Part shown: positions 14,395 through 21,000 of the stretch, piece by piece
Numbering within the stretch: position 1 is the stretch's first letter
How the letters are laid out: each line of letters begins with the position of its first letter
DNA from: Owenia fusiformis
Taxonomy: Eukaryota; Annelida; Polychaeta; Sabellida; Oweniidae
Direction: 5' to 3'
Length of the DNA: 64,000 nucleotides
Assembly: GCA_903813345.2 (NCBI GenBank)
Contig: CAIIXF020000002.1
Location: 31,614,926 to 31,678,925, forward strand
The notes under the pieces: generated by a model
What the model saw: only the letters and a program-made list of their open reading frames with translations
What the model was told of the DNA's origin: nothing
Databases searched by the model: none
Position numbers and translations under genes: made by a program

Positions 14395-15073
14395 CTATTG
14401 GAGTAACGATTCTATACTTTGTTGCTTTCTCCGTGAAGATTTGGGGCGTTTTGACGCTGTTTTCGGTCGCCCGGATTTCGATGTTTTCGGTTTTATTGGT
14501 TCCCCTGGGCAATTTGTGTTATAACTGAGGTAGACATTGGAGAGATCAAAGTCAACCTGGAAATAGATTTATATTCAAAATTTCTATTTTGCCTGGTTCG
14601 TTATATTCCATACAGCATTTCTCCCTACAATCTTATAATCCAGTTTCTTATTTTCTAACCAAATAATTTTCATGACATGTGTGTGGAAAAAATGTCTGCC
14701 TCGATGTAATTTTTTACATTCTACTGAAGGAGTCATCTTATTTCCATAAGCTGAGAATATTCCTCAGTCATTATGTTCTATGAGGATAGGTATGAAGTCT
14801 GATGAAGTAAAATGGCAACTACTTGATGGATGCAAACAACTATCCTAAAATTGGTAAGGTCAGTATTCTGGTACCAGGCTAAATATGAGTGCCTAGGCCT
14901 GTATAGTTTCACCTTGAACATTCTCACCCCTGCCATGTAAAACTACTCACCTTTTCTTTCTCTTTCTCTGGCATTGGAGTTTGTTTCCTCATGTTATTGC
15001 CAGTGTATGCTACACACTTCAACTGCCACTCACCAATGTCCTCATTCCAGTGGACATACTGCTCTATCATTTC
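14395..15073 (-). CDS. KIF3A tail exons 15 and 16
   Basis: Exon 15 (15073-14951, residues 610-650) begins [17 protein letters not shown], a segment nearly invariant in KIF3A, and ends with a Glu/Lys run (MPEKEKEK) before a strong donor, AAG|GTGAGT. Exon 16 (residues 651-703) encodes [12 protein letters not shown], then a basic Lys/Arg/Ser/Pro stretch ([20 protein letters not shown]) and ends SIESLLQ before TAG at 14397-14395, matching the vertebrate end DSLLQ. The tail binds KAP3 and cargo and contributes to autoinhibition. The acceptor of exon 15 is one of 27 equivalent acceptors in the array, but it is the only one coupled to this donor. Confidence 0.93.
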
Positions 15074-18000: not shown

Positions 18001-21000
18001 TTTGTTTTCTCATGTTATTGCCAGTGTATGCTACACACTTCAACTGCCACTCGCCAATGTCCTCATTCCAGTGGACATACTGCTCTATCATTTCCTAGAA
18101 TATAAGAAACACTCAATTGAATTCTCTGACATTACAGCAAGGAGTTTGTTTCCTCATGTTATTGCCAGTGTATGCTACACACTTCAACTGCCACTCACCA
18201 ATGTCCTCATTCCAGTGGACATACTGCTCTATCATTTCCTAGAATATAAGAAACACTCAATTGAATTCTATGACATTACAGCAAGGAGTTTGTTTCCTCA
18301 TGTTATTGCCAGTGTATGCTACACACTTCAACTGCCACTCTCCAATGTCCTCATTCCAGTGGACATACTGCTCTATCATTTCCTAGAATATAAGAAACAC
18401 TCAATTGAATTCTATGACATTACAGCAAGGAGTTTGTTTCCTCATGTTATTGCCAGTGTATGCTACACACTTCAACTGCCACTCTCCAATGTCCTCATTC
18501 CAGTGGACATACTGCTCTATCATTTCCTAGAATATAAGAAACACTCAATTGAATTATATGACATTACAGCAAGGAGTTTGTTTCCTCATGTTATTGCCAG
18601 TGTATGCTACACACTTCAACTGCCACTCGCCAATGTCCTCATTCCAGTGGACATACTGCTCTATCATTTCCTAGAATATAAGAAACACTCAATTGAATTC
18701 TCTGACATTAAAGCAAGGAGTTTGTTTCCTCATGTTATTGCCAGTGTATGCTACACACTTCAACTGCCACTCACCAATGTCCTCATTCCAGTGGACATAC
18801 TGCTCTATCATTTCCTAGAATATAAGAAACACTCAATTGAATTCTCTGGCATTAAAGCAAGCAGATTCTGCCATTATAATACTCATCATAATTCTCTGTT
18901 TCACTAGCAAATGAGGAGGGAAGATCCCAGAATTCATTGATGATGCTAGCTCTATGTGAAGATGAACATCTGAAGTTTCATCTTTTTATGATCATGTATG
19001 AATTCTGGGGTATCACCCCTCTTCACTAGCAACATACCCAGATATCATGAAGCCTCTTTTTAATCCAAATTCATGCTATGGGAAGTGTTACAACTGTCCA
19101 TAAGTGTGATGGTTATCATATGTTAAATTGCCTGTTTAATCTCTGTACATCACATAATAGGCATTTTAATCTATTGTCACTGTGCACCAAGATGTTTAAT
19201 TTACACCAAATTAAAAACAAGATCCAGACAATTGAAATGTACTTTTAGTGTCTTTTTCTGTACTAATTATAATTAATCAAATTAATGTAGGAAAATCTAA
19301 TCTATTTATCAAACACCTTAATTCATGCCCTTATATTAGTTAATCACAAGTAACCAGTAGTGAAATTTATTAACATTGCACATTCTGATGGAGGTAGACA
19401 GGTTTATACACATGATGGTACATGCATGACATTGGCATATCACATTACCTGATATTCTGGGGGTATAAACTAGTAATCAGTAGTGAAATTCATTAACATT
19501 GCAGGAGGTAGACAGGTTTATACACATGATGGTACACGCATGACATTGGCATATCACATTACCTGATATTCTGGGGGTATGAACTAGTTATCAGTAGTGA
19601 AATTCATTAACATTGCAGGAGGTAGACAGGTTTATACACATGATGGTACACGCATGACATTGGCATATCACAGTACCTGATATTCTGGGGGTATGAACTA
19701 GTAATCAGTAGTAAAATTCATTAACATTGCAGGAGGTAGACAGGTTTATACACATGATGGTACACGCATGACATTGGCATATCACAGTACCTGATATTCT
19801 GGGGGTATGAACTAGTAATCAGTAGTAAAATTCATTAACATTGCAGGAGGTAGACAGGTTTATACACATGATGGTACACGCATGACATTGGCATATCACA
19901 TTACCTGATATTCTGGGGGTATGAACTAGTTATCAGTAGTGAAATTCATTAACATTGCAGGAGGTAGACAGGTTTATACACATGATGGTACACGCATGAC
20001 ATTGGCATATCACAGTACCTGATATTCTGGGGGTATGAACTAGTAATCAGTAGTAAAATTCATTAACATTGCAGGAGGTAGACAGGTTTATACACATGAT
20101 GGTACACGCATGACATTGGCATATCACATTACCTGATATTCTGGGGGTATGAACTGGTCAATGATGACCATCTGCAAGCGTAGCTCTCTACTCAGCTGTC
20201 TTACATTCTCTAGCAAGCCTTCCATCTCTCTCTGGTGTTCCTGCTGTATGTCTGCTATCTACAATAACATTTTCAGTGGCTTTAATAAACATGGAATATG
20301 GATAAATATAATATAATGACGAAAACTGGCTGAAGGCAGAGTCAATCATTTACTGTACTTCTACTAAATTTGGCGCTACTTATTTTGATAGATTTGGTGT
20401 TTTGAGAATTTGGTGGCTACATAATTTGGCTGATTTAAACAATTTTCAGATTTATAAGCTTGCAATATCTCAATCTTACCTCTGATTTTGCCTGCATCAA
20501 CATGGTCCAAACTTTCTTTAACTTTTTTGTTTTCCCCGCTACTTCCTCTTGTAGAGTTGAGTACTTCTCTTCTATTTCTATTTTCTCTTGCTGGAGTAAA
20601 AAGAAAAAATGTTTTCATTGAACTGAAATATCAAGATTATTATAAATATAAAATGAAATGCACTCATATTATACAGAGCATATAAAATATGATTTTCTAT
20701 TTTAAAATGCACAAGGTTTCTTTGTGCCTCTGAACAATTCACCAAATTATAAGTTCGGCAATGATTTTATTTAGGAAAATAATGCACTGGGGTTGGGATA
20801 TTATGATATTTCAAAAAATGTAGTCTAGTATGGTACAAGATGATATTTAATGCCGAAAGACAATTTATCCCAACCATATTTACTCATTTCAGCCTATGAA
20901 TTAAACAGATCTACTAAAAGTCTAAAATAAGTTCCAAGTTTTATCTCCAAATCATTCTCTTCACCTCTTTCTCCTGTAATTGTTTCCTCATATTCTCCTC

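What the first reader, a model, noticed from the sequence alone, without database searches (positions are those of the whole stretch)
14975..18868. A kinesin exon echoed 27 times: 144-bp array of KIF3A exon 15 with its splice acceptor
The sequence directly shows 27 consecutive copies of a unit made of an intron end plus the first ~98 bases of KIF3A exon 15, in the gene's own orientation and next to the functional copy. Most tandem exon arrays (for example Dscam) hold complete, diverged exons; here the copies lack the exon's 3' end and are almost identical. That makes 27 competing 3' splice sites for one donor. I know of no described kinesin with this arrangement.
Basis: partly seen in the sequence, partly recalled or inferred. 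Interest (0 to 1): 0.9.

Follow-up and report, generated by a model that had tools for sequence, protein, structure and literature searches.

The report
Splice-site "mirage" repeats in KIF3A
A genome that looks like an annelid worm's carries 27 tandem copies of the start of a kinesin (KIF3A) exon with its splice signal, an extreme case of a repeat type ("mirages") known from amphioxus, which turned up here at about one in fourteen of the exons sampled.

Summary
In detail: 27 copies of about 144 bp, 98% alike, on the minus strand. Each carries the splice acceptor and the head of the second-to-last coding exon of KIF3A. Only the 3'-most copy has the rest of the exon and a donor. The unit matched nowhere else in the 498-Mb assembly.

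It is not unique. Another kinesin gene has 18 such copies, and 13 of 180 sampled kinesin, myosin and kinase exons have a splice junction in or beside a tandem array, with the intact copy outermost. This is the "mirage" minisatellite described in amphioxus. The genome looks like an annelid (Owenia fits), so the place is new, not the kind.

Most likely mechanism: unequal exchange grows the array; splicing pairs the outermost sites because only these define exons (inferred, no RNA data). In the two long arrays 12 of 13 shared substitutions are synonymous, suggesting exchange with the working exon, or use of inner copies. Twelve other arrays together do not show this, and junctions are not enriched for arrays relative to introns.

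The parts
14976..18861 (-). Acceptor mirage: 27 copies of the KIF3A acceptor plus exon head; 26 inner copies and the working one
14951..15073 (-). Working exon (copy 27), second-to-last coding exon of KIF3A, 123 nt, followed by donor GTGAGT
15074..18814 (-). The 26 inner copies; 25 of 26 keep the AG, 22 of 26 encode the same 32 residues as the working copy (not copies 7, 13, 16, 26)
19390..20155 (-). Donor mirage: 114 bp x 6.7, end of the preceding exon plus its donor; 7 donors, first intron bases at 20132, 20018, 19904, 19790, 19676, 19562, 19448
20133..20258 (-). Preceding coding exon (126 nt), whose donor is the outermost of the seven
14395..14556 (-). Last coding exon, ends with the stop codon
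22197..22467 (-). Degenerate 21-bp array starting at the donor of an upstream KIF3A exon (22642-22456); older donor mirage by my reading
14395..31525 (-). KIF3A coding exons modelled here (14 exons; the first exon and at least one exon between 30631 and 24205 are not modelled)
   Evidence: kinesin family matches

Best explanation
The array is a 'mirage' minisatellite: a tandem repeat whose unit straddles an exon-intron junction, here the acceptor of the second-to-last coding exon of KIF3A (shown by the sequence). A duplication that joined about nt 110 of the exon to the intron just upstream of the acceptor started it, and unequal exchange grew and homogenised it (inferred). The gene keeps working because copies are added on the intron side: the outermost donor and the outermost acceptor stay in complete exons and are joined, and the 5-kb intron with all inner sites is removed (inferred from exon definition; reported for amphioxus mirages). 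Inner sites are mostly silent decoys, since using any of them would truncate KIF3A (shown by translation). In this long array copies exchange with the working exon often enough that the variants which spread are synonymous (inferred).
For: Unit structure and single complete copy. Same plan at a second kinesin gene, 18 copies, and at 17 junctions read by eye in 76 sampled regions, working copy outermost in each. 12-nt word of the exon end inside the unit. Inner and working acceptors identical over 20 nt in 22 of 26 inner copies, so the choice must come from context. Inner acceptors and donors all give early stops. Shared substitutions 5 of 5 synonymous in KIF3A and 7 of 8 in the second gene. 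Arrays cover junctions about as often as intron windows, 9 of 212 against 742 of 13,040, as expected if crossing a junction is tolerated. Amphioxus precedents with RT-PCR (passages).
Against: No RNA or read data: that the outermost pair is used is not shown. The synonymous bias is absent from 12 other arrays taken together (17 synonymous, 35 not; shared 9 and 17). Copy 26, next to the working exon, is the most damaged (two missense changes and a stop), which does not suggest conversion by the nearest neighbour. Two or three of the synonymous differences in the second gene may have arisen in the working copy.
Confidence: 0.75

Rival explanations
1. The inner copies are used. The array acts as an acceptor trap that makes a KIF3A which keeps the cargo-binding exon head but ends after RKQTP plus a few new residues (CCNVREFN in most), without the last 61 residues; selection on that protein keeps the copies synonymous.
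For: 25 of 26 inner acceptors keep AG and 22 of 26 inner copies encode the same 32 residues. All shared substitutions in the array are synonymous. The head covers residues of the HAC domain named in a mouse KIF3A structure paper (passages).
Against: Stops lie upstream of a further splice junction, so such mRNAs should be decay targets (established knowledge). Exchange with the working exon explains the same bias. Other arrays show no bias. Amphioxus mirages are reported not to disturb splicing.
Confidence: 0.12
2. The array is an assembly artefact that multiplies one or two real copies.
For: Near-identical tandem repeats are a usual place for copy-number errors, and raw reads could not be checked.
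Against: Copies carry scattered private and shared variants and differ in length. Like arrays recur at independent loci. No N in the window.
Confidence: 0.04
3. A set of complete, mutually exclusive exons of the Dscam type.
For: Tandem copies in gene orientation beside the working exon.
Against: 26 of 27 copies lack the exon end and donor, are nearly identical, and run into a stop.
Confidence: 0.02

Closest known systems
Amphioxus 'mirages' (Adh3, globins BflGb6 and BflGb9, troponin C, PGBD5); PMC3087553 and PMC3902484, passages seen
   Same: Minisatellite-like tandem duplication across an intron-exon boundary, at 5' or 3' ends of introns, units of about 10 to 160 bp, many units keeping splice signals, authentic copy at the edge.
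   Different: 27 and 18 copies here against 6 and 3 units in the two BflGb6 haplotypes; both ends of one intron arrayed; many genes; a genome that looks annelid. Length and somatic instability and normal splicing, reported in amphioxus, are untested here.
Mutually exclusive tandem exons (Dscam type; in this genome a GSK3-like pair in L005)
   Same: Tandem copies of exon sequence in one intron.
   Different: Those are complete, diverged exons; here only one copy is complete and the rest are nearly identical heads.
Minisatellites beside splice choices in C. elegans (CeRep25B; PMC4039745, passages)
   Same: Tandem repeats in introns near splice sites.
   Different: CeRep25B is a 24-base repeat found at many places; the KIF3A unit carries exon sequence and a junction and matched one locus.

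Membership tests
Mirage minisatellite | Tandem repeat unit spans an exon-intron boundary | tested here: met
   acceptor array; donor array
Mirage minisatellite | Authentic exon at the edge of the array, inner units with or without splice signals | tested here: met
   Copy 27 is the complete exon; AG in 26 of 27
Mirage minisatellite | Regular splicing of the mRNA is not disturbed | not testable with these tools
   No RNA data from this species
Mirage minisatellite | Length instability between haplotypes or tissues | not testable with these tools
   One assembly only
Mirage minisatellite | Host is a cephalochordate, as in the published cases | tested here: not met
   A feature of the published cases, not of the definition. 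PF16915 (annelid linker) 3 matches over cut-off, innexin 34 matches, GFP 0 but with no control ringing; the taxon reading of these families is recalled
Mutually exclusive tandem exons | Each copy is a complete exon with acceptor and donor | tested here: not met
   Only copy 27 has the exon end and donor
Dispersed satellite | The unit occurs at other places in the genome | tested here: not met
   Matches only at this locus (DNA search skips very common words)

The most novel reading that the evidence does not exclude
The long mirages are not passive: inner exon heads of KIF3A are spliced and translated at a useful level, giving a KIF3A with its cargo-binding head but no C-terminal tail, in an amount that scales with copy number, so that an unstable minisatellite tunes the isoform ratio of a motor protein; the all-synonymous shared variants are the trace of that selection.
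Probability: 0.1. Interest if true: 0.9.

Novelty: new member of a known kind. Interest (0 to 1): 0.55.

Why it matters
Mirages were reported in a handful of amphioxus genes. Finding them at about 7% of sampled exons in a genome that looks annelid means that they are convergent or older than thought, and that duplication across splice junctions is widely tolerated in some animals. Twenty-seven near-identical acceptors facing seven near-identical donors are a natural experiment on how the spliceosome chooses among like sites, and a possible source of new exons and introns, as the amphioxus authors proposed.

Tried and rejected
Rejected: dispersed satellite (single locus); Dscam-type exons; a KIF3A-only feature; enrichment of arrays at splice junctions. 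My first impression that most strong arrays sit on junctions came from sampling close to exons; one search gives 4.2% of junctions against 5.7% of intron windows.

Led nowhere: COX1 gave no match; GFP gave none and no control rang. The 2002 Adh paper on mirages is not held. A first synonymous count had two wrong frames (L014, L051 donor) and overlong segments; one search replaces it. One search took 12 of the 17 junction arrays read by eye; dropped were the 42-bp array of L007, L010, the 39-bp array of L023, L032 and L047 (little exon sequence, degenerate, or cut by the region's end). Identity cut-offs ran from 0.70 to 0.90 and were set by me per array. Copy 16 (indel) was left out of the counts. 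One search placed 212 junctions for 180 exons; it missed six junction arrays that I read by eye (L010, L015, the 39-bp array of L023, the acceptor of L051, L063, L079), set the L032 junction on an inner copy, and flagged L034, which I did not read by eye.

Full report
What is there. Tandem Repeats Finder reports 14976-18861, period 144, 27.0 copies. On the minus strand, which carries KIF3A, I cut 27 copies with exon heads starting at 18814 down to 15073. Each has an intron end, TTTCTTATATTCTAG in nearly all, followed by an exon head that encodes [33 protein letters not shown]. The last copy alone continues into a 123-nt exon (15073-14951) with donor GTGAGT. The joined exons give a KIF3A tail that matches PDB chain 9w9i_A, KIF3A, at E 9.8e-53. 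AG is kept at 26 of 27 acceptors; copy 18 has AA. Exon heads are 98.0% alike, copy 16 left out. The unit matched nowhere else in the assembly.

The other end of the same 5,059-nt intron is arrayed too: 19390-20155, 114 bp x 6.7, repeats the end of the preceding exon with its donor and gives 7 donors. That array is also local. A third, degenerate array of 21-bp units (22197-22467) starts at the donor of an upstream exon. Of 26 KIF3A splice sites tested, 3 had like copies in their intron and 23 had none; the gene model lacks the first exon and at least one exon between 30631 and 24205, and at most 6,000 bases of each intron were searched.

What inner sites would do. Donors 2 to 7 read EYQVM stop. 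Of the 26 inner acceptors, 22 read RKQTPC plus a few residues (CCNVREFN in most), 2 (copies 8 and 10) read [13 protein letters not shown] and on to a stop, copy 16 is frameshifted before that, and copy 26 has a stop; copy 18, among the 22, has no AG. Only the outermost donor with the outermost acceptor gives full-length KIF3A.

How the unit arose. A 12-nt word, AATGCCAGAGAA, stands at exon nt 99-110 and again 39 to 28 nt upstream of the first acceptor. The simplest reading is that the first unit held about 110 nt of the exon and that a 7-nt insertion (TTGCTGT or TTGCTTT in most) after nt 98 came later; copies 8 and 10 lack it. This is inference.

It is a genome-wide pattern. A kinesin-domain scan of the same genome (122 of 218 candidates scored) showed 18 matches of one exon at 159-bp spacing in another kinesin gene, kinesin-4-like by recalled motifs. 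Read in full it has the same plan: AG at 18 of 18 acceptors, inner copies reading KNKPVAL stop, only the 3'-most copy complete. A kinase scan (124 of 876 scored) and a myosin scan (65 of 210 scored) showed no such ladder, though kinase regions read later did hold junction arrays, so a scan of this kind misses many. I fetched 36 regions with 132 kinesin and myosin exon matches (130,336 bp) and 40 regions with 48 kinase exon matches (53,590 bp), chosen by me from the scan lists, leaving out the KIF3A window and the 18-copy array, and read the candidates. Thirteen of 180 exons have a splice junction in or beside a tandem array: one each in L007, L009, L010, L014, L015, L032, L042, L063 and L079, three in L023, and one in L051 with both ends. 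L010 is degenerate; in L032 and in the 39-bp array of L023 the unit starts at the donor, with four exon bases or none. Three more junctions lie at exons outside the matched set (a second in L007, L036, L047). That makes 17 junctions in 13 of 76 regions. In each the working copy is the outermost. Arrays in L019, L020, L021 and L029 are intron only.

Not enriched at junctions. An automated test placed 212 junctions and asked for copies of the 24-nt junction window within 1.5 kb: 9 of 212 (4.2%). Intron windows gave 742 of 13,040 (5.7%), exon interiors 35 of 2,793 (1.3%), and junction windows against an unrelated region 0 of 212. Arrays cross junctions about as freely as they occupy introns. That fits tolerance better than a special function of junction arrays.

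Selection on the copies. In the KIF3A array all 5 substitutions seen in two or more copies are synonymous, as are 3 singletons; 5 nonsynonymous ones are singletons, 3 of them in copy 26 (for the shared ones P 1.0e-4 with equal rates, 5.9e-4 with a transition bias). The most variable site is a glycine codon, GGT, GGA and GGC in 11, 10 and 6 of 27 copies. In the second gene 7 of 8 shared ones are synonymous (P 1.6e-4 and 6.7e-4); two or three of these set the working copy apart from nearly all others and may have arisen in it, and two travel together. Both arrays came to notice for their size. Against this, 12 other arrays together show 17 synonymous and 35 nonsynonymous variants, shared 9 and 17 (P 0.07 and 0.13). 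The bias thus belongs to the two long arrays. I read it as exchange that passes copies through the working exon, where only synonymous changes survive; use of inner copies would leave the same trace.

Mechanism. In 22 of 26 inner copies the 20 nt before the exon are the same as at the working acceptor, so the choice cannot come from the site itself. Only the last copy has a donor 123 nt downstream, and only the first donor belongs to an exon with its own acceptor. Exon definition would join exactly these. This rests on established splicing knowledge; no RNA was available. [quoted passage not shown] a second paper says the same of Adh and troponin C (PMC3902484, passages).

In print. 'Mirages' are described in amphioxus Adh3, globin, troponin C and PGBD5 genes. 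My searches of the held library for such repeats and for KIF3A exon arrays listed no report outside amphioxus. I saw listings only, and of the longer ones a part (20 of 47, 15 of 164, 12 of 13 and 10 of 393 papers), and most subscription papers are not held, so this is no proof of absence.

Which animal. The assembly has 498 Mb in 525 contigs; the lengths printed for contigs C1 to C12 run from 31.9 to 62.2 Mb. The annelid erythrocruorin-linker family PF16915 has 3 matches over its cut-off within 15 kb, innexin 34 matches, GFP none but without a working control. The Owenia fusiformis paper gives 505.8 Mb and 12 chromosome-scale scaffolds (PMC9977687, passages). An annelid is likely; Owenia is a guess that fits. 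That linkers mark annelids, and that amphioxus has GFP genes and no innexin expansion, is recalled.

What a truncated KIF3A would be. The repeated exon head covers residues that a cryo-EM study of mouse kinesin-2 names in its HAC domain (Cys623 to Tyr626, Asn630, Met631; PMC12551710, passages). Inner acceptors would keep these and drop the last 61 residues of this protein. Whether any such mRNA exists is unknown.

Noticed in passing
L006 (G000:C2:23265600-23270400), array 746-3589: Second long acceptor mirage, 18 copies x 159 bp, in another kinesin gene; every inner copy carries AATAAA inside the coding part.
   Followed up: partly
L005 1896-2240 (G000:C10): Two complete, diverged tandem exons of a GSK3-like kinase, likely mutually exclusive exons of the ordinary type.
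   Followed up: partly
G000:C9:37986009-37994334: At least twelve matches to the same part of the myosin head within 8 kb, as in myosin heavy chain genes with alternative exons; seen in the listing only.
   Followed up: no
window 45255-45805 and 47022-48324: Two arrays of a 42-bp unit in opposite orientation, arms up to 370 nt and 99% complementary; perhaps a mobile element.
   Followed up: no
window 17714-18907, + strand: The strand opposite KIF3A has open frames through the array, up to 397 aa, because the 144-bp unit is a multiple of three without stops in that frame.
   Followed up: no
KIF3A exon head nt 42, window 15074-18814: The glycine codon GGT lies in a donor-like word GGTGAGT; 16 of 26 inner copies have GGA or GGC, which removes the GT. 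Chance, or loss of a cryptic donor.
   Followed up: partly
window 34479-35783 and 50491-51597, + strand: ORFs that look like an HtrA-type protease and a reverse transcriptase (names from recalled motifs).
   Followed up: no
window 24961-25290 and 27647-27998: Two 159-bp tandem pairs whose consensus units look like reverse complements of each other.
   Followed up: no
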